Made by a program: the position numbers and the translations under genes. Of a stretch of DNA of 64,000 nt, positions 21,324 to 63,526 are shown piece after piece (within the stretch, counting starts at the first letter, position 1; every line of letters begins with the position of its first letter). The notes beneath the pieces are model-generated. The model ran no database searches. It worked only from the letters and a program-made list of their open reading frames with translations, and was not told the origin of the DNA. The DNA comes from Methylomonas rivi (GTDB lineage Bacteria; Pseudomonadota; Gammaproteobacteria; Methylococcales; Methylomonadaceae), in NCBI RefSeq assembly GCF_024505165.1, contig NZ_JANIBK010000003.1, positions 1-64,000 on the forward strand. Direction: 5' to 3'.

Positions 21324-21351
21324 AAAAAGCCTGTCTTGCATGGGCTTTTTT
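21324..21351 (+). terminator. Rho-independent terminator after the HDOD gene
   Basis: AAAAAGCC (21324-21331) pairs with GGCTTTTT (21343-21350) around an 11-base loop and runs into T residues. It starts 10 bases after the HDOD stop and reaches the end of the convergent lipoprotein gene; its A/T symmetry could let it work in both directions. Confidence 0.8.
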
Positions 21352-22060
21352 AAGGTTGGGGCGCGGGAGAGGCCGCCGGCAAGCGGTGCGGATTGTTCAT
21401 TACAATATCCTTCAATAGCAGATCGGTTTCGTCCACCGGCACCGCTACCATATGCCCGGTATTGGCGGCGAGATAAGGCTGCATGGCCGTCACCATGTAA
21501 GGGAAAATCAAGCGCAGATCATTACTTTGGCCTTGGCTTTGCACGCTGACCTTCCAGAGCTGTACCGGGGGCTTTTGCAGTAAATAGGCGGCCATATCGT
21601 AGGCTTCAAGCGTCAAATGCCGTTTGAAAACCGTATAGGTTTCGATATGCTGAGTATAGCCGTAAGCCATGCTTGGATAATACCGATAAGAGCGGTAATA
21701 CGGGTAATAGCCGAAATTGTTCATGATAGGTACCTCGTAGCTGTATTGGCGGATTTGCGGCTCTCCCGTCCCGTAATCCAAAAACAGCACCGCATCGCCA
21801 TCCTGCATCTGTTCGACTTTGACAAACCCCCGGTTAAGCAAAGCCTTCTCGACATATCCCTTGAACTCCATAAATTGCAAATCCTGCGGTTTAATGTCTT
21901 TGTTGGCGGGCAATATTACGAAGCGCCGCTTACCTTGGACATCACTTGCCGCCAGCGCATCCACTTCGGCATTAATTTGCAATTTCCGCGGCCCCATGGC
22001 GCAAGCGGACAACAGCATTAATGCGATATAGAGAAAAAGGCTGCACCGCATTTTATACAT
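21350..22060 (-). CDS. Lipoprotein, DUF4136-like, of unknown function
   Basis: This is an exported lipoprotein of about 236 residues. Its signal peptide is hydrophobic and ends in the lipobox LLSAC, followed by AMGPRKLQINAEVDAL. A Tyr-rich stretch (about residues 115-140, including YYPYYRSYRYYP) and an overall alpha/beta body are compatible with the DUF4136 lipoprotein family. I chose ATG 22060: it overlaps the preceding gene's stop by 8 bases, indicating translational coupling. It is the last gene of a three-gene set with a membrane protein and an SPFH-like coiled-coil protein. Family assignment is tentative, function unknown. Confidence 0.75.
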   Translation of the reverse strand: MYKMRCSLFLYIALMLLSACAMGPRKLQINAEVDALAASDVQGKRRFVILPANKDIKPQDLQFMEFKGYVEKALLNRGFVKVEQMQDGDAVLFLDYGTGEPQIRQYSYEVPIMNNFGYYPYYRSYRYYPSMAYGYTQHIETYTVFKRHLTLEAYDMAAYLLQKPPVQLWKVSVQSQGQSNDLRLIFPYMVTAMQPYLAANTGHMVAVPVDETDLLLKDIVMNNPHRLPAASPAPQP

Positions 22061-23123
22061 CGGTATTCTCAATGCCGTCTTCGCCATCGCTGTCAAGGTT
22101 TCCCGCCGCGCGCCAATGTCGCCGAGCAGAGTCGCGCCGCTGGATTTCCGCGAGCGTCTGCTTATCCGCCAAAACAGCCTGATGCGCCAACCGTTCCGTC
22201 AGCTGCCGGGCTTCCGCCAAGCGCTGCTTGGCGTCAAGCTCTTGCAGAGAACGCAATTCAATTTCAAGACTCGTTTCCTTGAGTTGCTGCTCATGCTCCA
22301 TTCGCGCGGCATGTAAGCGCCTTTCCACCTCGAGCTGCCGGGCAAGCTGTTGCTCCTTATCCTGTAACAATTGAATTTGCGCTTCGGCCTCGGCCAACTG
22401 GATTCGGCGCTGCATTTCGGCCAGTTGTTTAAGATGTTCCAGTTCCTGCTGTTTTGCCTGCAAGGCCTGCTGTTCGTTATAACGCTGTTGGCGTTGATGT
22501 TCCCGATTTTTTTCTTCGTTTAATTCGAAGGTTTTTTTCAGCACATGCAGATAAACGCTGTCTTTCCCTAACCGAACCTCGGGAAAGTCGGCAAAAACCA
22601 CCGTCATATGGCAAACGGCTTCGGCCTGGATGTGCTGCTGGGTCAACACTTCGCAAACCGTAATGGCTATGCGCTTTTCGTGCTCGGCCAGCCCCTTTTG
22701 CACCCAGCCGCCATCCGCTAACTTATGCAGTTCCTGGTTGATTTTATCTTCGATAACAGCCGCGTAAAGCCCCTGAATATGCCGATTAATGCTATCCAGC
22801 ACTTCCGGATTCTTTTGCACGTAATTCAAGGTGGCCTGAAAGCGCAAATCCAGCGCAATATTCACCGTGCAAAAATCGTCGAATAAATTTACTTGCCGCC
22901 GATAAGGCCAGGTTTCAATCGTTAACGGGTATAACTGGTGAAAAAAACGCTTGGTGAACTTGCCGGGGCGCAAAAACAGGCGCTGGAAGGGACCGATTTT
23001 AAGTACAACTACTTGCCGATCGGCATCGAAACCGGCCACCCACTGCTCGGGATCCGGCAAGTTTTGCTCGAAAAGGTCCTCGCCCGCCAGCCACGCTTCC
23101 AGCTCGTTATCGGCACTATTCAT
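22053..23123 (-). CDS. SPFH-like coiled-coil protein of unknown function
   Basis: The 356-residue protein has no signal peptide or transmembrane helix. Residues 35-190 have beta-rich then helical character resembling an SPFH/band-7 domain (for example FCTVNIALDLRF followed by a helix, then a second strand-helix unit). Residues 200-330 form a continuous Gln/Glu/Ala/Leu-rich coiled coil, and the C-terminus is acidic. Band-7 proteins such as stomatin and HflK/C end in comparable coiled coils, but the match here is by pattern only. Its ATG overlaps the stop of the membrane protein gene by 4 bases and its stop overlaps the lipoprotein start, so the three genes are tightly coupled. Confidence 0.7.
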   Translation of the reverse strand: MNSADNELEAWLAGEDLFEQNLPDPEQWVAGFDADRQVVVLKIGPFQRLFLRPGKFTKRFFHQLYPLTIETWPYRRQVNLFDDFCTVNIALDLRFQATLNYVQKNPEVLDSINRHIQGLYAAVIEDKINQELHKLADGGWVQKGLAEHEKRIAITVCEVLTQQHIQAEAVCHMTVVFADFPEVRLGKDSVYLHVLKKTFELNEEKNREHQRQQRYNEQQALQAKQQELEHLKQLAEMQRRIQLAEAEAQIQLLQDKEQQLARQLEVERRLHAARMEHEQQLKETSLEIELRSLQELDAKQRLAEARQLTERLAHQAVLADKQTLAEIQRRDSARRHWRAAGNLDSDGEDGIENTDV

Positions 23124-24373
23124 GGCTCGTCGGCAGGCGCTTTAGGCAAAGACTTGGCTTTGAGGGCCGCTATCTTGTCCGACATTTTTTCGGCAATCAG
23201 CGGATAGAGACTGGGCGCGAATTCAACGGTTCGGGCGTCCACTTTTCTTAAAAACCCCCGGCTCAGCAGCAAGCCGACCACAAACATCCGCGACCAGTCG
23301 GAATAACGGCGGGCTTTTTCCAGCTCGGACTTTTCGATGACCATTTCCAGCTCGTCGTTTTGATTGATGCGAAACTCGGAAAATTGCCGCAAACATTCGA
23401 ATACCAATTCCTCTTCCTGTACCGTTAAAGGCCCGGGAGCGGTAAATTCCAGACGGTACGACAGCAACACGGTAAAAAAATCCACCATGGCCGCGCAGGC
23501 AAAAGCAAACCAGGAAAAACCCTGCCACATGGCAAACGAAGGCTTCACCTCTTCCACGAATTGCTTATAAGTCATCAGCATGGGTGCGTCAGGCAACTGC
23601 AAGCCCGCGCTGCTGGAGAGTTGATTCACAATCAGCTGTATATCCTGGTAGTTTTTCAACATCTGATAGTAAGCCGTCTCCTGATTTTGGGCGACATCCA
23701 AATCCCCCAAACTGGTTTGCAGCTGGCGAATTTTGGCATCCAAATCCAGAAAGGCTTGCTCTTGAACTTGAAACGCCTGTTTTTTTTCCTGATATATCTG
23801 ATTGTAATGCCGCCAAAAAGGCCCTTCTCCGATTTGATTTTTATAGCCGGGCGCTATTTGTTCGTGGGTGCCGAAATAGGCCTGGGATACGTCGGCGGAC
23901 GCTTTATCCAAAGCCTGTTGATGATTTTGCAATAATTGGCTTTTTTGCGCCAGAACGCTGCCAAGATAGGATTTAATATCCTGCCTGATCTGCTGCACCC
24001 GGTCGATATGCAGGGATTCCTGTTCGGATATTTCATAAAACTTGAAATACGAAAACGTAATCGATGCCGTCACCGCTATGCACAGCGAGCTAACCACCGA
24101 AAAATAGCGGACGCGATTGGCTGTCCAATGTATGCCGGCCATTTCCAGGGAGCAAATCACGATAATGGATTGAATGGCAATGGTGATGATCAATGCGATC
24201 CAGGGCGTAATGAAATGCGACAGCCCGTAATAGGTGGTAAACCCCGACGACACGCTCAGCATCAACACAATCGGAATCGTCCATATGCGCAGCATACTGA
24301 CGAACAGCGTCTGGATACGGTTGATCAGATAACCCAACCCGGCAGAGCGCAGTTTAATTCGCGAATCTTTCAT
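23120..24373 (-). CDS. Polytopic membrane protein with large helical loop
   Basis: The 417-residue protein has three hydrophobic segments near the N-terminus (about residues 28-48, 55-75, 90-112). Then comes a long polar, Gln-rich helical region (115-285), a fourth membrane segment (about 290-312, GFSWFAFACAAMVDFFTVLL) and a cytoplasmic C-terminal part of about 100 residues. The helical loop is probably periplasmic. I recognise no family. The gene begins 31 bases after cysK and overlaps the SPFH-like gene by 4 bases (ATGA). Position behind the sigma-E operon suggests an envelope function. Confidence 0.72.
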   Translation of the reverse strand: MKDSRIKLRSAGLGYLINRIQTLFVSMLRIWTIPIVLMLSVSSGFTTYYGLSHFITPWIALIITIAIQSIIVICSLEMAGIHWTANRVRYFSVVSSLCIAVTASITFSYFKFYEISEQESLHIDRVQQIRQDIKSYLGSVLAQKSQLLQNHQQALDKASADVSQAYFGTHEQIAPGYKNQIGEGPFWRHYNQIYQEKKQAFQVQEQAFLDLDAKIRQLQTSLGDLDVAQNQETAYYQMLKNYQDIQLIVNQLSSSAGLQLPDAPMLMTYKQFVEEVKPSFAMWQGFSWFAFACAAMVDFFTVLLSYRLEFTAPGPLTVQEEELVFECLRQFSEFRINQNDELEMVIEKSELEKARRYSDWSRMFVVGLLLSRGFLRKVDARTVEFAPSLYPLIAEKMSDKIAALKAKSLPKAPADEP

Positions 24374-24404: not shown

Positions 24405-25310
24405 CTAGCTCATGCTCAAATAGCGCTCGCCGGTATCGTGTACGATGGTGACGACGGTTTTGCCGACCCCTAACCGGGCAGCGACGCGCAACGCCGCGCA
24501 CACGCTGGCACCGGAAGAAATACCGGCCATAATGCCTTCTTCCCGGATCAGCCGTTTACGCATGGCGAAAGCGTCTTCCGTGCTGACCAGCTCGATACCG
24601 TCCAATAAATCCACATCCAGATTTTTAGGCACGAAACCCGCCCCGATGCCTTGTATCTTGTGCGGACTATGCGTGCCGCCGGAGATGACCGGCGATTCGG
24701 ACGGCTCCACGGCAATCGCCTTAAACTCGGGATTGCGGTTTTTAAGCACATCGGCGACCCCGGTAATCGTGCCCCCCGTCCCCACCCCGCAGACAAACGC
24801 ATCGATCTGACCATCCGTGCCGGACCAGATTTCCTGGGCCGTGGTCTGCCGATGCACCTCGGGATTGGCCGGATTTTCAAATTGCTGCGGCATGAAGGCG
24901 CCGGTTTCGGCCACAATTTCATGGGCTTTATTAATCGCCCCTTTCATGCCTTCGCCGCCGGGTGTCAGTACGATTTCCGCGCCGTACAAAGCCAGTAGCT
25001 GCCGCCTTTCGATCGACATGGTATCCGGCATCACCAAGGTACAGCGGTAGCCGCGCGCGGCGGCTATCATGGCCAAGGCAATACCGGTATTACCGGAGGT
25101 GGGTTCGACAATGCTGCCCCCGGCTTTTAAAACGCCCGATTTTTCGGCGGCTTGGATCATAGCCTGGCCGATCCGGTCCTTGACCGACCCGCCCGGATTT
25201 CTGGATTCCAACTTAACCAGGACGGTGGCCGAGTCATCGGGCACAATCCTATGCAGTTTGACTAACGGCGTATTACCAATTAATTGCGTAATGTTGATTG
25301 CGTTAGCCAT
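24405..25310 (-). CDS. cysK: Cysteine synthase (O-acetylserine sulfhydrylase)
   Basis: This PLP enzyme of about 301 residues condenses O-acetylserine with sulfide to cysteine. The PLP lysine lies in GGSVKDRIG (about residue 42). The substrate loop SGNTG, the phosphate-binding loop GTGGTITG and the C-terminal GISSGASV segment are all present. The length and the PTSGNTG loop fit CysK more than CysM. I prefer ATG 25310 over a TTG two codons earlier; a GAGG site lies about 10 bases upstream. It follows mucD by 14 bases, so cotranscription with the sigma-E operon is possible and unusual. Confidence 0.93.
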
Positions 25311-25324
25311 ATGCAAAATACCTC

Positions 25325-26722
25325 TTATTTATCGATCTTGAACGCTAAAAAAACCGGACTGCCGTTACGCTGAATCAGCATGGCAATGGATTTATCCACC
25401 GGCAGTTTAGCAACAATTTTATTAAAGTCGGCAACATCTTTTACCGGCGCGTTTTGCACCCGTAAAATGACGTCTCCGGGTTGAATACCGGCATCCAGGG
25501 CGATACCTTTGCCGACTTTTTGCACCAGCACACCGTTTTTTTCAACCTGCAATTGCTGACGCTGCTCTTCGGTCAGATCGGCCACCGCCAAACCAAGCCT
25601 GTTTACAGTAGTTTCAGGCATCGAACTAGGCGCCAACTGTACCGCCTGAGCCGGCAGCAGACCCACTTTTACGGACAAATCCTCCTTGTCGCCCTGGCGG
25701 ATGATTTTCAGCGTGGCTTTCTCGTCGACGGGCGTCATGCCCACGATAGGCGGCAATTCGCCGGACGTTTCGATGACGTGGCCATCGAACTCGACGATAA
25801 TATCGCCAACCTGCAGACCGGCCTTTTCGGCCGGACCGCCGGGTATGACCTTGGCAACCAAGGCGCCATGCGGTCTGTCCATGCCGAACGATTCGGCCAA
25901 CTGGCGGGTAACGTCCTGAATTTGCACGCCCAACCAACCGCGCGATACCTTGCCCTTGACTTTGATTTGTTCGGCGACATTCATGGCCACATCGATCGGA
26001 ATCGCAAAAGACAGGCCCATATAACCGCCGGATCGGCTGTAAATTTGCGAGTTGATTCCCACCACTTGACCCTGCATGTTGAACAACGGACCGCCGGAAT
26101 TGCCGGGATTGATGGCTACGTCCGTTTGTATAAACGGCACATAATTACCATCCGGCAGACTGCGTCCCTTGGCGCTGACGATACCCGCGGTCACGGATTG
26201 TTCGAAACCGAACGGCGTGCCTATGGCCAACACCCATTCCCCAACTTGCAATTGTTCGGGGGCGCCGATTTGAACCACGGGCAAATCCTTGGAATCCACT
26301 TTCAGCAACGCCACATCGGTACTTTCATCGGAACCCACCAATTTCGCCAACAGTTCGCGCCGATCCTTCAGTTTAACCACAATTTCCGAGGCATTGTTGA
26401 CCACATGGTGGTTGGTCAAAATATAACCGTCCTTGGAAATTACGAAACCCGAACCCAGGGAATTCGTTTCCTTGGGAACATAGCCCCGGCCAGGCCCTTG
26501 AAAGAAATGCCGAAAAAAATCCTCCAATTCAGGCGGGATATCCTGGGGGATTTGTTGCTGATCGGGCTCCATCTGCAGTTCCGGCGCTTTTTGGGTAGTG
26601 CTGATATTGACCACCGCATCGCCATTGTTTTTTACCATTTCGGTAAAATCGGGCAACTGCGCGAAAGCCAGCGATGTCATCAGCATCCATAACCATACGC
26701 TATTTACAAATTTATTAAACAT
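25325..26722 (-). CDS. mucD: Periplasmic Do/DegP-type serine protease
   Basis: This exported HtrA protease of about 465 residues has a signal peptide ending AFA. Its trypsin-like domain carries catalytic His (LTNHHVV), Asp (STDVALLKV) and Ser (GNSGGPLFN), followed by two PDZ domains (first with [20 protein letters not shown], second with [14 protein letters not shown]). It degrades or refolds damaged envelope proteins. Start ATG 26722 is supported by GGAGA 5 bases upstream and by immediate onset of the signal peptide. As the fourth gene of algU-mucA-mucB-mucD it is the counterpart of Pseudomonas MucD, which limits sigma-E activation. Confidence 0.95.
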
Positions 26723-26767
26723 GCATTCTCCATTCATACATTTCATACTTAAAAGCAGTTAATTTTT

Positions 26768-27712
26768 TCAACGTAACGATACGCCCTTGGCAACCAACTC
26801 GACGGTTTGCACGGGCACTTCCCCCAGCGCGGTGATTTGCAGATCGTCTATCACCCGGCTGTAAGAATTGACAGGCCCCAAGCTGCGTAAACCTTCGATG
26901 CCTTTTTCACCCTTGGCTTCAAAATAAACCGAAACGCTGGAAAAACCGTCGCTAATCAACAAATGGTCCACGGTTTTTTTGGACTGCTGCATGGTATTGC
27001 GGATGAAAAAAATTTTTTCAAACCCCGCCGGCCAATTTTTTAATTCAAATGGCGATTTTTCAAACGCTTCGGCTTGCGAAACGTGTTGATGGTGTTTGCT
27101 CTCTTCGTCGGCCGCCGTTTGATCGGCGTCGGTTTGCGTTGCCAACGCATCCACATTCAACTCGGTAAACAAAACTTGCTCTAGCGTTTTACCGTCCTGC
27201 CCGTAAACTTCAACTTTCAGCGGCAGAAGACTGGCGGTATCGATCCAGAGTTTGCGCGCATAGCGCAAGTCGTCCTTGGGTAATACCGCAATGATTTGCG
27301 CCGGGCGCATGGCGATCATTTCTTGACCTGCCACCGCAAACAGATATTCGTCGTGCAAACGTTCCGGCTTTAACGGCAAATTGACGATGAAGGACCGGTC
27401 TATCGGATGTTGGGTTTCGACTTTTTGTTGGCTTTCCTTGTACAGACAACTGATCTCATTGGAATGCCGGGTCACTTCCCGCAAGGGGGAATTCAGCGAA
27501 GTCAAGCGTTCGGTTTCAATGCCGCTTTCAAAGGTATGCCGATACCTCATGGTATCGACTTGACCGTGTTTCATGAATACCACGGTGCCGTGGTAATTCA
27601 AGGTTTTCATCGCATGATTGACTTTTTCCAGCCATTGCCGGCCGTCTAAAGTCTGATCGTCATTCGCAAAGGCACAAGATATAAAAAGCAGAAAAACAAA
27701 TAATAATCGCAT
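26768..27712 (-). CDS. mucB: MucB/RseB sigma-E regulatory protein
   Basis: The 314-residue periplasmic protein has a signal peptide (MRLLFVFLLFISCAFA). Its two-domain RseB/MucB fold starts with a lipoprotein-carrier-like N-domain (LNYHGTVVFMKHGQVDTMRY) and ends in a C-domain containing HLLISDGFSSVSVYFE. MucB binds the periplasmic tail of MucA and protects it from proteolysis until mislocalised lipopolysaccharide or porins accumulate. It lies 8 bases downstream of mucA and 45 bases before mucD. Confidence 0.94.
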   Translation of the reverse strand: MRLLFVFLLFISCAFANDDQTLDGRQWLEKVNHAMKTLNYHGTVVFMKHGQVDTMRYRHTFESGIETERLTSLNSPLREVTRHSNEISCLYKESQQKVETQHPIDRSFIVNLPLKPERLHDEYLFAVAGQEMIAMRPAQIIAVLPKDDLRYARKLWIDTASLLPLKVEVYGQDGKTLEQVLFTELNVDALATQTDADQTAADEESKHHQHVSQAEAFEKSPFELKNWPAGFEKIFFIRNTMQQSKKTVDHLLISDGFSSVSVYFEAKGEKGIEGLRSLGPVNSYSRVIDDLQITALGEVPVQTVELVAKGVSLR

Positions 27713-27720
27713 TTACAAGC

Positions 27721-28224
27721 TTATTTGGGTTGATAACTGGCCAGACGGGCATACGATTTGACGCCGACATTATTATTAACGTACCAAACATTGTCGTGGG
27801 CTTGTAAATAATCCTTGAACTGCGCGTTCATTTGATCCGCCGGAGTCTGGCTCTGTGCCGCCGTCGTGATTTCCGCAAAGGGTTGGATCCGGTTTTGCAT
27901 TTTTCCGGCATAAAAGCCAACCACGGCCAAAACTACCGAAGCGGCCACCGCCAGGGAGGTTTTTTTAAAGTGATCGTCCGACTTTTTCCGCGGCAAGAAA
28001 TAAACCGGTTCCGATTTCAATTGCCGCTTGAGCTTCTCGGCAAAATCCAAATCGGCCACCGCGCCTTGTTCGCCTTTTAGCGCCTGACTAATCAGCGCAT
28101 AGCGTTGCAGTTTGGCTTGCAGTTCCGGATCGCGCTGTACCGACTTTAACAACGGTATGGCCTGTGCGTTATCGAGTTGATCGTCAACCAGTAATGAGAG
28201 TTTTTCAATTTGTTGTGCTTGCAT
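27721..28224 (-). CDS. mucA: MucA/RseA-type anti-sigma factor
   Basis: The 167-residue inner membrane protein has a cytoplasmic RseA_N domain (residues 1-85, beginning IEKLSLLVDDQLD), one transmembrane helix (about 92-110, SLAVAASVVLAVVGFYAG) and a short periplasmic tail. It should sequester the sigma factor encoded just upstream and release it after regulated proteolysis. The gap to algU is 10 bases. Its periplasmic tail is short compared with Pseudomonas MucA. Confidence 0.93.
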   Translation of the reverse strand: MQAQQIEKLSLLVDDQLDNAQAIPLLKSVQRDPELQAKLQRYALISQALKGEQGAVADLDFAEKLKRQLKSEPVYFLPRKKSDDHFKKTSLAVAASVVLAVVGFYAGKMQNRIQPFAEITTAAQSQTPADQMNAQFKDYLQAHDNVWYVNNNVGVKSYARLASYQPK

Positions 28225-28234
28225 GGTAATACCT

Positions 28235-28825
28235 TTAACCGAGCAATGGGTTTAATTTTTCGTCGATAGCCTCGCGGGCCCTGAATATCCGGGAGCGCAC
28301 GGTGCCGATTGGGCAATCCATGGCTTCGGCAATCTCTTCGTAGCTCATGCCTTCAAACTCCCTTAGGGTAATGGCAATGCGCATTTCTTCGGGCAATTTC
28401 TCGATGGCCGATTTGATTACGGCAATAATCTGATCGTTCATCAATTGATGCTCCGGTGTTTCTATGTCTTTCAACTGCGGGGCGTTCTCGATTTGTTCGG
28501 CATCCTGCATATCGACTTCATAGTCGGAATGCCGCCTGGAGCGCGACAACAGGTAATTTTTAGCGGTATTGATCGCTATTCGATACAGCCATGTGTAAAA
28601 AGCGCTATCGCCCCTAAAATCGCCCAAGGCCTTATAGGCTTTGATAAAAGAATCCTGCGCCACATCTTGCGCTTCGCTAGGGTCTTTTACATACCGGTTG
28701 ACCAGATGCACAATCCTGTGCTGATACTTGATAACGAGAAGATCGAAGGCGGCTTTATCGCCTTGCTGGACCCTGCGCACCAAGTCCTGATCTATATCTT
28801 CGGAGAGCCTTGTTGATTCGTTCAC
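28235..28825 (-). CDS. algU: RNA polymerase sigma-E factor AlgU/RpoE
   Basis: This is a 196-residue ECF sigma factor. Region 2 (about residues 25-90) includes the DVAQDSFIKAYKAL helix and a WLYRIAINTAKN -10 recognition segment. Region 4 (about 135-190) carries the helix-turn-helix MSYEEIAEAMDCPIGTVRSRIFRAR. It directs envelope-stress transcription. The start is GTG at 28825; there is no better alternative before region 2. It heads algU-mucA-mucB-mucD and shows a candidate self-regulated promoter upstream. It is divergent from nadB, as in many gammaproteobacteria. Confidence 0.96.
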   Translation of the reverse strand: MNESTRLSEDIDQDLVRRVQQGDKAAFDLLVIKYQHRIVHLVNRYVKDPSEAQDVAQDSFIKAYKALGDFRGDSAFYTWLYRIAINTAKNYLLSRSRRHSDYEVDMQDAEQIENAPQLKDIETPEHQLMNDQIIAVIKSAIEKLPEEMRIAITLREFEGMSYEEIAEAMDCPIGTVRSRIFRAREAIDEKLNPLLG

Positions 28826-41490: not shown

Positions 41491-42453
41491 TCATTCCCCC
41501 TTCTCCGCCCGCTTCAACATCCCGAACAACTCGCTATCGGTCGACAATACGATGCTGGCGTCGCTGTTGATGACCTTGCGGTAAGTTTCCATGCTTTTCA
41601 TGAACTTATAGAACTTGGCCGCTTCCGGTCTTTGCCCGTAAGCTTTGGCGTAAATTTCGCTGGCTTTGGCGTCGGCTTCGCCCTGAATTTCCTGCACCCG
41701 CTTGTAGGCGGTGGACTGGATTTCGTTGAGGTCGCGCTCCTTGTTGCCGTTGATGCGGGCCGCCTCGCCCTCGCCTTCCGAGCGGAAGCGCTGGGCAATC
41801 TGCAAACGCTCGCTGATCATGCGCTGGTAGATCCGTTCCAGCACCTGCTGGTTGTAATTGATGCGCTTGAAGCGCACGTCCAGCAATTCGATACCGAATT
41901 CTTCCAACTTGGGCGCCGCCGATTCGAAAATACTTTTTTCGATGGCGACCCGACCGACCCGGATCGGCCGTAATACTCCCAGCGTGCCCTCTCCGGCCAA
42001 ATCGCCCAGCGTTTCATCAAGAAACGGCTTGCGGTCTTTATCGGTACGCACCACTTCGATCAGCTCGTGGCGTGCAATGGCGGTGCGGGTTTCGCTGCCC
42101 AGGATGTCCTCCAGACGGGATTGGGCGCTACGTTCGTCCCGTAAACGCAGGTAGTAGCGCATCGGATCGGTAATGCGCCAGCGGGCGAAGGTATCGACCT
42201 GTACATAGGTCTTGTCCTTGGTGGACATTTCCACCATCGGCCCGTCCCAGGCCAGATAGCGTTTGTCGAAGCTATTGACCTGCTGCACGAAAGGCAACTT
42301 GAAATGCAGGCCAGGCTCGGTGATGGGGTCGCCGATCGGCCGGCCGAATTGGGTAATAATCACCTGTTCCGCCTGGTTGACGGTAAAGGCGGACAAATAC
42401 GCGGTGAACGCCAGCACGGCCAGCAGCAGGCCGGGTTTTCCGGAAAAACTCAT
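41491..42453 (-). CDS. HflC-like SPFH protein (second copy)
   Basis: This 320-residue protein has an N-terminal membrane anchor (LLLAVLAFTAYLSAFTV), an SPFH/band-7 domain (QAEQVIITQFGRP to the KDKTYVQVDTFARWRI strands), and a C-terminal coiled coil with EGEGEAARINGNKERD and the YGQRPEAAKFYKFMKSMETY tail of HflC. HflC and HflK form a periplasmic complex controlling the FtsH protease. The canonical hflC is at 62672-63526, so this is an additional, diverged copy. It overlaps the adjacent HflK-like gene by 4 bases. Confidence 0.88.
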   Translation of the reverse strand: MSFSGKPGLLLAVLAFTAYLSAFTVNQAEQVIITQFGRPIGDPITEPGLHFKLPFVQQVNSFDKRYLAWDGPMVEMSTKDKTYVQVDTFARWRITDPMRYYLRLRDERSAQSRLEDILGSETRTAIARHELIEVVRTDKDRKPFLDETLGDLAGEGTLGVLRPIRVGRVAIEKSIFESAAPKLEEFGIELLDVRFKRINYNQQVLERIYQRMISERLQIAQRFRSEGEGEAARINGNKERDLNEIQSTAYKRVQEIQGEADAKASEIYAKAYGQRPEAAKFYKFMKSMETYRKVINSDASIVLSTDSELFGMLKRAEKGE

Positions 42454-43427
42454 GGCGCGGCCTCCAATAGTTTGGATGTCATCGGCAGCATGGGCATGAT
42501 TTGCTGCACGCTGTCATCGACGATGATTTGCTGTCTGGCCTGCGGCAACACATCGCCCAGGGTTTCCAGATAAATCCGGGCCCGGGTCACGTCCGGGGCT
42601 TTTACGTACTGCTCCAGCACTTGAGTAAAGGCATAGGCATCGCCTTCCGCTTCGTTGATGCGTTTGAAGCGGTAACCCTCGGCGGCGCGAATGTTCTGAT
42701 CGGCCTCGCCGCGCGCCCGGGGCACGGCCTTGTTATATTCGCCGTTGGCGATGTTGATGACGTTTTCCCTGTCCTGTTGGGCGCGATTGACTTCGTTAAA
42801 GGACGGCTGTACCGGCACCGGCGGATTGACGTTTTTCAGCTGCACTTGGTTGACGGTCACCCCCAACTGGTAGCGCTGGGCCAATTCGCGGGTGCGGATC
42901 AGCACCGAATCCTCGATTTCCTGCCGGCCTATGGTGATGATTTCGTCCACCGTGCGGTCGCCCACCACTTCCCGCATCACCGCTTCGGAAATATCCCGCA
43001 AGGTTATGCCTGGATCGCGCACATCGAACAAGTATTTCTCCGGGTCGGTAATCCGGTACTGCACGATCCACTCGACCAACGCCGAATTCAAATCGCCGGT
43101 GACCATGGATTTTTCCAGAGCCGGATCGCTGCCGATTTGGTCCGGATTCGTGTAGCCGGGGGTGGCGAAACCGAACTCCAGTTTTTGCTGGCGCTGGGTC
43201 GGCACTTCGATGACGTTATCGACGCCAAACGGTAATTTGGCATGCAGGCCGGAGGGCACCTTGTCGATGTACCGGCCGAAACGCAAGACGATGCCTTCCG
43301 ATTCCGCGGGAATGGTATAAAACGACATATTGGCGCCGGTTAATAGCAAAACCGCCAGTAACAGGATTTTTGGCGATAACGGCAGTACAGCCGTTAAGCG
43401 TTCGAACAACGTGCTCGGATCGTTCAC
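42450..43427 (-). CDS. HflK-like SPFH protein (second copy)
   Basis: The protein of about 325 residues has one N-terminal membrane helix (KILLLAVLLLTGANMSFYTI), the band-7 domain (ESEGIVLRFGRYIDKVPSGLH), and the VPRARGEADQNIRAAEGY coiled-coil region typical of HflK. It lacks the long Gly/Pro-rich N-terminal extension found in canonical HflK. GTG 43427 is favoured because GGAGG stands 5 bases upstream; an ATG 12 bases earlier overlaps that site. Together with the HflC-like gene it forms a separate two-gene SPFH operon. Confidence 0.87.
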   Translation of the reverse strand: MNDPSTLFERLTAVLPLSPKILLLAVLLLTGANMSFYTIPAESEGIVLRFGRYIDKVPSGLHAKLPFGVDNVIEVPTQRQQKLEFGFATPGYTNPDQIGSDPALEKSMVTGDLNSALVEWIVQYRITDPEKYLFDVRDPGITLRDISEAVMREVVGDRTVDEIITIGRQEIEDSVLIRTRELAQRYQLGVTVNQVQLKNVNPPVPVQPSFNEVNRAQQDRENVINIANGEYNKAVPRARGEADQNIRAAEGYRFKRINEAEGDAYAFTQVLEQYVKAPDVTRARIYLETLGDVLPQARQQIIVDDSVQQIMPMLPMTSKLLEAAP

Positions 43428-43507
43428 GCAAACCTCCATAATTCAAAAAAGACGGATGGCGAAACGCTCGGCTTGGCCTGTGAGTAGAAAAATAATTCGG
43501 AATAATC

Positions 43508-62671: not shown

Positions 62672-63526
62672 TTATTTTTGCTGCTTAAAGAACTTGAAGA
62701 AATCCGAATCGGGTTCCAATACCATGATATTGCCGGATTTGCCTAGGCTTTGTTTATACGCAATCATGCTGCGGTAAAAAGCATAGAAGTCTTGGTCCTC
62801 GCTATAAGCCTTGGCGAAAATATCGGCGGCTTGAGCATCGCCTTCGCCACGCATGACTTCGGAATCGCGATAGGCATTCGCCAAAATGATTTCGCGTTGT
62901 TTATCGGCATCCGCCCGGATACGCTCGGCGGCCTCGGAACCTTGCGAACGGAATTCTCGCGCCACCCGAGCCCGTTCGGCTTCCATGCGCTGGTAAACGG
63001 AACTGCTGACTTCATTCGGCAAGTCAATCCGCTTAACCTGTACATCGACGATGTTGATACCCAATTTCAAGGCATGCGGCGACACATTGGTAATCAAGGC
63101 TTCGCGAATGGCGCTACGGTCGGTGGAAACCAGTTGCTTGATTTCACGCTTGCTGAATTCGCTTCTGAATGAATCCTTGATGATTTGATCCAGCCGGATA
63201 TTGGCCTGATTGGCATCGCCGCCCACCGAGGTATAAAAGGTTTTGACATCGGCTATACGCCATTTGACGAACGAGTCGACGATGACATTCTTCTTTTCCG
63301 CGGTCAGGAAGCGTTCAGGTGTCGAATCCATGGTCAGGATGCGCGCATCGAACTTTTTGACATTATTAATCAGCGGCAGCTTGAAATGAATGCCGGGTCT
63401 AAAGTCCACCGCGACGATTTCGCCCAACTGAAACTTGATGGCCCGCTCGGTCTCGGTCACGGTAAACACCGACATGGATAGCAATACCAGCAGTGCGCCA
63501 ACGGCAACGATTATTTTATTACCCAT
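62672..63526 (-). CDS. hflC: FtsH protease modulator HflC
   Basis: The 284-residue protein is canonical HflC: N-terminal membrane anchor (KIIVAVGALLVLLSMSVFTV), SPFH domain with ERAIKFQLGEIVAVDF and VIVDSFVKWRI, RVAREFRSQGSEAAERIRADADKQ in the coiled coil and YGSDFFKFF-like C-terminus (PDSDFFKFFKQQK). It caps FtsH in the inner membrane with HflK. The hflK stop is 1 base upstream. Confidence 0.95.
   Translation of the reverse strand: MGNKIIVAVGALLVLLSMSVFTVTETERAIKFQLGEIVAVDFRPGIHFKLPLINNVKKFDARILTMDSTPERFLTAEKKNVIVDSFVKWRIADVKTFYTSVGGDANQANIRLDQIIKDSFRSEFSKREIKQLVSTDRSAIREALITNVSPHALKLGINIVDVQVKRIDLPNEVSSSVYQRMEAERARVAREFRSQGSEAAERIRADADKQREIILANAYRDSEVMRGEGDAQAADIFAKAYSEDQDFYAFYRSMIAYKQSLGKSGNIMVLEPDSDFFKFFKQQK

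What the first reader, a model, noticed from the sequence alone, without database searches (positions are those of the whole stretch)
21350..24373. Three-gene envelope module behind the sigma-E operon: membrane protein, SPFH-like protein, lipoprotein
The three unknown genes overlap (4 bases and 8 bases), so they are translated together. They encode a four-helix membrane protein with a large Gln-rich helical loop, a soluble SPFH-like protein with a 130-residue coiled coil, and a Tyr-rich lipoprotein. Together they could span cytoplasm, inner membrane and outer membrane. The set follows algU-mucABD and cysK on one strand with short gaps, suggesting that envelope stress may induce it. SPFH assignment is by pattern only.
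Basis: partly seen in the sequence, partly recalled or inferred. Interest (0 to 1): 0.65.

Follow-up and report, generated by a model that had tools for sequence, protein, structure and literature searches.

The report
Membrane protein paired with SPFH-like protein
Two overlapping genes that travel together in many methane-eating Methylococcales appear to encode a membrane anchor and a soluble protein shaped like the stomatin/flotillin scaffold proteins, while the lipoprotein gene beside them is only a local neighbour.

Summary
The three overlapping genes are real and sit as described behind algU-mucABD-cysK, but the conserved unit is two genes. A (4-TM protein) and B (soluble coiled-coil protein) were adjacent in 45 of 45 relatives with A (of 61 searched), and B followed A in 78 of 80 named loci. 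B's predicted structure matches SPFH proteins best (Foldseek: flotillin, HflK/C, erlin, stomatin, QmcA), yet sequence profiles do not link it to Band_7, and it has no evident membrane anchor. A has no Pfam match over the cut-off for the window's protein and no NCBIfam match; it has a Gln-rich helical region, probably periplasmic, and a conserved C-terminal domain, probably cytoplasmic. Lipoprotein C (DUF4136) and the muc-operon linkage were found only in the window's genus, and C also stands without A-B. No sigma-E promoter motif was found before algU or A. Best reading: A recruits B to the inner membrane, where B forms a scaffold, much as YdjG/YdjH recruit YdjI in Bacillus, but with a different partner and no PspA in the run. 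A role in the methane-oxidation membranes is possible but unsupported: pmoA presence does not track A.

The parts
23120..24373 (-). Gene A: membrane protein, 417 aa; TM regions about 23-48, 58-78, 90-113 and 286-306; Gln-rich helical region 114-285; conserved C-terminal domain 307-397
   Evidence: homologue in 45 of 61 relatives and in 138 of 200 order genomes
22053..23123 (-). Gene B: soluble SPFH-like protein, 356 aa; predicted SPFH-like part about 28-180, long helix 189-341
   Evidence: homologue in 46 of 61 relatives
21350..22060 (-). Gene C: DUF4136 lipoprotein, 236 aa, accessory neighbour in the window's genus
   Evidence: PF13590 33.1 bits against a cut-off of 32.8; 25 sound matches in 61 relatives, all own genus
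24405..25316 (-). cysK, upstream neighbour, 31 bases before A
   Evidence: TIGR01139, E 1.3e-134
25325..28825 (-). algU-mucA-mucB-mucD run upstream (sigma-E type operon)
   Evidence: TIGR02939, RseB and Do-protease matches; the mucA-position ORF has no NCBIfam match at 1e-10
21324..21350 (.). A+T-rich hairpin between the convergent ends of C and the HDOD-like gene, possible shared terminator
   Evidence: -7.3 kcal/mol on the - strand (18 of 200 shuffles as good), -11.9 on the + strand (5 of 200); not listed by the terminator scan

Best explanation
A and B form one two-component complex at the inner membrane. A is the integral anchor, with four TM helices, a helical region on the periplasmic side and a conserved C-terminal domain in the cytoplasm. 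B is a cytosolic SPFH-like protein without its own anchor; the C-terminal domain of A recruits it to the membrane, where B oligomerises through its long helix into a ring or dome that organises a membrane patch. Shown: adjacency, overlapping frames, conservation by region. Predicted: the SPFH-like fold of B and the topology of A. Inferred: A-B binding, oligomerisation, scaffold function. C is an accessory lipoprotein of the window's genus.
For: A and B adjacent on one strand in 45 of 45 relatives with A; B follows A in 78 of 80 named loci, frames overlapping in 75, although the surrounding genes differ between genera. B model pLDDT 81.9; Foldseek's first 17 rows are SPFH structures. B lacks an N-terminal hydrophobic segment, so a membrane partner is needed if it is to sit at the membrane. 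A has four hydrophobic segments in 48 of 49 members. The C-terminal domain of A is far better conserved across the order than its helical region (0.76 against 0.42-0.46), and residues 28-67 are the best conserved part of B (0.63). YdjI, an SPFH protein described as anchor-less, needs two membrane proteins of its operon to localise (PMC8581546).
Against: No sequence profile links B to Band_7: no PF01145 match in the window's B or in 17 family members, B is not among the 11 Band_7 places in its own genome, and hhalign gives 0.1-0.3 % probability, no better than shuffled columns. Only two Foldseek rows reach E 0.001, TM-scores are low (query-normalised 0.24-0.31 for the first 17 rows) and rmsd high. 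In VIA-align dihydroneopterin aldolase (Z 8.2, rmsd 3.6, 97 residues) ties with the stomatin domain (Z 8.1, rmsd 3.6, 105). The A model is modest (pLDDT 70.7). No interaction of A and B was tested. The pair is dispensable: 62 of 200 order genomes of at least 90 % completeness have no A match.
Confidence: 0.55

Rival explanations
1. A is a sensor: its helical region reads a periplasmic signal and its cytoplasmic domain passes it on with B as adaptor; in the window's genus it acts within the AlgU envelope-stress response.
For: Among VIA-align's rows for the helical region are sensor domains: TorS Z 9.3 (rmsd 3.0, 137 residues) and McpS Z 7.9 (rmsd 2.6, 106). The middle of that region, 161-192, is better conserved (0.64) than its flanks. 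The pair lies behind the muc operon in 12 of 14 own-genus loci inspected and mucD lies upstream in 15 of 80 named loci.
Against: Designed helical bundles score as high (Z 9.6, rmsd 3.9, 140), and the tool warns that Z under about 13 means little for bundles; Foldseek has no match at E 0.001. No sigma-E motif before algU or A. 0 of 15 loci from other families have the muc operon upstream.
Confidence: 0.2
2. B is a cytosolic coiled-coil protein whose resemblance to SPFH proteins is a chance or convergent match, and A-B is a membrane complex of another kind.
For: All sequence-level tests of Band_7 membership were negative; the core alpha/beta part matches dihydroneopterin aldolase as well as the stomatin domain.
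Against: Foldseek ranks 17 SPFH chains first, and flotillin, prohibitin and erlin align over both the alpha/beta part and the helix.
Confidence: 0.15
3. The three genes are one trans-envelope machine, with C as the outer-membrane part.
For: C directly follows B in 23 of 25 genomes with a sound C match, with an 8-base overlap in the window.
Against: Of 24 relatives outside the genus, none has C except one weak hit with stops, while 15 of the 24 have A and B. C stands without A-B in G029 and G019. 7 of 30 own-genus genomes with A-B have no C match.
Confidence: 0.07

Closest known systems
YdjI with YdjG/YdjH (pspA-ydjGHI operon, Bacillus subtilis; PMC8581546, abstract and two sections seen)
   Same: An SPFH protein described as lacking a membrane anchor, encoded with membrane proteins that it needs to localise; under an ECF sigma factor there, behind an ECF sigma factor gene here in the window's genus.
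   Different: One membrane partner here, two there; no PspA found among the named genes of this run; YdjI is described with a zinc-finger motif. B and YdjI were not compared by sequence.
SPFH8 and SPFH9 subfamilies (PMC2636767, passages seen)
   Same: Described there as the two of 12 prokaryotic SPFH subfamilies that seem soluble.
   Different: Their sequences were not compared with B here; B is not recognised by the Band_7 profile.
SPFH-NfeD operons (for example QmcA-YbbJ)
   Same: A two-gene unit of an SPFH protein and a membrane protein; QmcA-YbbJ is among the Foldseek rows.
   Different: A shows no NfeD match and B has no N-terminal TM segment.
HflK/HflC
   Same: SPFH architecture with long helix; Foldseek rows 3, 4, 7-9.
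   Different: HflK and HflC of this genome are separate genes in the same window and belong to Band_7; B does not match it.
DUF4407 (PF14362)
   Same: Weak match of 9 of 17 A proteins, best E 4.6e-6.
   Different: In the window's A the match (E 0.067, under the cut-off) covers only the helical region; five TM-part and three C-terminal pieces give no DUF4407 match.

Membership tests
SPFH / Band_7 superfamily (protein B) | Match to the Band_7 profile PF01145 or profile-profile similarity to Band_7 proteins | tested here: not met
   No match in B or 17 members; not among own-genome Band_7 places; hhalign 0.1-0.3 %, as shuffled columns
SPFH / Band_7 superfamily (protein B) | SPFH fold: beta hairpin, alpha/beta domain, then C-terminal long helix | tested here: met
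   By predicted model only: order of elements, Foldseek rows 1-17 all SPFH, two at E 0.001 or better, prohibitin Z 10.1, rmsd 16.9, 215 residues
SPFH / Band_7 superfamily (protein B) | N-terminal membrane anchor, usual but not universal (PMC2636767) | tested here: not met
   Highest 19-residue hydropathy 0.91; family maximum 1.76, at residues 145-163 inside the predicted domain
SPFH / Band_7 superfamily (protein B) | Oligomeric ring or dome | not testable with these tools
   Single-chain models only
YdjI-type system | Anchor-less SPFH-like protein encoded with a membrane protein | tested here: met
YdjI-type system | PspA gene in the operon | tested here: not met
   The genes of the run that were named are not PspA; the mucA-position ORF had no NCBIfam match
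YdjI-type system | Sequence relation of B to YdjI | not tested
   YdjI sequence not fetched
SPFH-NfeD operon | NfeD domain in the membrane partner | tested here: not met
   Only DUF4407 matched A in Pfam at E up to 5; no NCBIfam match
DUF4407 (protein A) | Score over Pfam's cut-off, 31.3 bits | tested here: not met
   12.9 bits for the window's A; scores of other members were not shown
DUF4136 (protein C) | Score over Pfam's cut-off, 32.8 bits | tested here: met
   33.1 bits, E 9.1e-8

The most novel reading that the evidence does not exclude
A-B is a new class of two-part membrane-domain scaffold: a soluble SPFH-fold protein too diverged for any sequence profile tried here, recruited by an unnamed 4-TM receptor family, which Methylococcales use to shape or stabilise their inner and intracytoplasmic membranes.
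Probability: 0.12. Interest if true: 0.75.

Novelty: new variant of a known kind. Interest (0 to 1): 0.45.

Why it matters
It would add an anchor-less SPFH-like protein with a dedicated, unrelated-looking membrane partner to a family mostly known with its own anchor or with NfeD, in bacteria that matter for the methane cycle. The pair is a clean two-gene deletion target in culturable methanotrophs, so a role in membrane organisation, including the intracytoplasmic membranes whose biogenesis is called unknown in PMC9445010, could be tested directly.

Tried and rejected
Sequence route to SPFH: Pfam and NCBIfam scans, PDB sequence search with B and with its profile and hhalign with shuffled and reversed controls were all negative. 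PDB searches for C and for the A profile gave nothing convincing: photosystem lipoprotein E 0.28, coiled coils, best E 0.0053. Fold search of A: no Foldseek match at E 0.001; VIA-align gave mostly helical bundles. DUF4407 as family of A: limited to the helical region in the window's protein.

A link to sulfur assimilation was considered: cysK upstream in the window's genus, a cysN cluster directly upstream in 14 of 80 named loci (one member named CysN and a cysD-cluster member named CysD). Rejected as a rule, since other loci have other neighbours and some own-genus loci lack cysK. Link to pMMO: no association with PF02461. Promoter and terminator scans were at chance level (10 found against 9.1 expected, 11 against 11.0). 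Plasmid copies of B: no match. Pairwise identities of A and B correlate (r 0.82 over 46 loci), but without a control for shared ancestry this was not used as evidence.

Papers: the listings showed none that I recognised as describing this pair. Seen beyond listings: PMC8581546 (abstract, two sections), PMC2636767, PMC13086221 and PMC9445010 (passages). PHROGs and PADLOC were not searched. Gene context was read in 29 of the 45 relatives with A (all 15 of other families, 14 of 30 own genus). The search for related loci kept 80 of 154 loci. Rows dropped: C match in G059 (E 1.5e-4, 4 stops) and the second A match in G030 (E 3.5e-4, one stop). Alignments hold a part of what was available: A1 and A2 the window plus 16 of 29 loci, A3 the window plus 59 of 78, A4 the window plus 48 of 80.

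Full report
Observation. The three genes lie on the - strand at the stated coordinates, with overlaps of 4 and 8 bases. Upstream on the same strand are an RpoE-type sigma factor, an RseB-like protein, a Do-type protease and cysteine synthase A; the ORF at the mucA position had no NCBIfam match at 1e-10. Gaps are 8 to 31 bases. The terminator scan, itself at chance level, lists nothing in the 31-base gap before A, and that gap folds weakly.

The conserved unit is two genes. In 61 genomes (the own one and 60 relatives) B was found in 46 and A in 45. In all 45 with A, B lies directly downstream on the same strand; the one B without A (G003) begins at base 7 of its contig. In 80 named loci B followed A in 78, with overlapping frames in 75 and gaps of 10, 18 and 23 bases in three. 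L150 carries the start of B up to its contig end. L152 has only 128 bases after A, and I see no B start there. The titles of these 80 records name Methylococcales genera, methanotrophic symbionts or unplaced MAGs; two are titled Bacteroidetes, which I take, by inference, for mislabelled bins.

C is a neighbour. It matched in 26 of 61 genomes, one of which I drop. 23 of the other 25 have it after B; G029 and G019 have it without A-B. 7 of 30 own-genus genomes with A-B have no C match, and C was found in 11 of the 80 named loci. In G029 the genes from algU to cysK are followed by C, and a 20-residue stretch with 50 % identity to the B C-terminus (E 0.016) lies just before C; its place suggests a remnant of a lost A-B, but the match is short. 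The muc operon is upstream in 12 of 14 own-genus loci and 0 of 15 loci from other families, one of these a 3.2-kb contig; mucD is upstream in 15 of 80 named loci, many of which are cut short.

Distribution. Of 200 genomes of the order with at least 90 % completeness, 138 have A, in 43 of 48 genera; adjacency of B was not checked in all of these. In a class sample of 369, A matched in 4: the own genome, two of the same order and one weak hit to the helical region (E 5.1e-4). B matched in 3 of 369, all in the order. In a phylum sample of 299, A matched weakly in four besides the own genome. Two of these four, predicted at 822 and 1092 residues, share with A a TM pattern with TT-x-x-G, then T and Q, then S-x-x-FS (12 invariant columns in 6 sequences). 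They may be distant relatives; their strong later scores are circular, because both were in that profile. Beside the 1092-residue one I saw no SPFH gene by eye; no family search of its neighbours was run.

Protein B. The AlphaFold2 model, from 60 sequences, has mean pLDDT 81.9 and pTM 0.47. Foldseek's first 17 rows are flotillin, HflK/C, erlin, stomatin and QmcA structures, E 7.9e-5 to 0.043, two of them at or below 0.001, with low TM-scores. VIA-align: prohibitin Z 10.1 (rmsd 16.9, 215 residues), flotillin Z 9.4 (rmsd 16.9, 306), vault protein Z 8.3 (rmsd 21.8, 297); dihydroneopterin aldolase, Z 8.2 (rmsd 3.6, 97), ties with the stomatin domain, Z 8.1 (rmsd 3.6, 105). Sequence profiles give no support. 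I therefore call B SPFH-like by predicted fold and do not file it as a Band_7 member. It has no hydrophobic N-terminal segment.

Protein A. Four hydrophobic segments in 48 of 49 members, five in one; the N-terminus has 5 K+R and 1 D+E, the loop between TM2 and TM3 has 2 and 0, and that between TM1 and TM2 none of either. By the positive-inside rule (established knowledge) the Gln-rich region 114-285 is then periplasmic and 307-417 cytoplasmic. Across the order the TM segments (0.71-0.89) and residues 331-397 (0.76) are conserved, the helical region much less (0.42-0.46), except its middle, 161-192 (0.64). The model is modest (pLDDT 70.7, pTM 0.45) and finds no confident fold match.

Mechanism. 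I propose that A anchors B at the inner face of the cytoplasmic membrane and that B builds a scaffold there. The precedent is YdjI, described as lacking a membrane anchor and needing YdjG and YdjH to localise (PMC8581546). A-B binding, oligomerisation and function are inferred, not shown.

Methane oxidation. Restriction to Methylococcales, as far as sampled, suggested a link to intracytoplasmic membranes, whose biogenesis PMC9445010 calls unknown (passages). But PF02461 matches occur in 38 of 45 genomes with A and in 13 of 16 without, and in 15 of 16 further near-complete genomes of the same family that lack A. The family also covers diverged monooxygenases. The link is not excluded, only unsupported.

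Verdict. A real, order-level two-gene module without a Pfam or NCBIfam name: a new variant of the SPFH-plus-membrane-partner kind, with SPFH assigned by predicted fold only. The three-gene and stress-operon readings hold at most within the genus.

Noticed in passing
window 41491-43439 (-): hflC and hflK, by TIGR01932 and TIGR01933; a second pair of Band_7 matches lies at 62942-63463 and 63930 onward, running past the window end; the own genome has 11 Band_7 matches.
   Followed up: partly
L206:100-2568 and L207:7664-10942: Large coiled-coil membrane proteins (822 and 1092 aa) of two distant genomes share a TM pattern with A and have no Pfam match over its cut-off.
   Followed up: partly
L116:6668-6995: cysK followed by C without A-B; a 20-residue match to the B C-terminus (E 0.016) lies between them, possibly a deletion scar.
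   Followed up: partly
L134, L137, L138, L141, L142, L144, L145, L147, L148, L152, L154, L158, L167, L183: A cysN-type gene (L144 member named CysN) lies directly upstream of A in these 14 of 80 named loci, while cysK does so in the window's genus.
   Followed up: partly
L087:8238-9458, L088:6827-8002, L101:6749-8230: B proteins of one other family end in a Trp/Leu/Arg-rich tail that could be amphipathic and touch the membrane (tails printed; reading by eye).
   Followed up: no
window 21324-21350: A+T-rich hairpin between the convergent ends of C and the HDOD-like gene (name recalled), a possible bidirectional terminator.
   Followed up: partly
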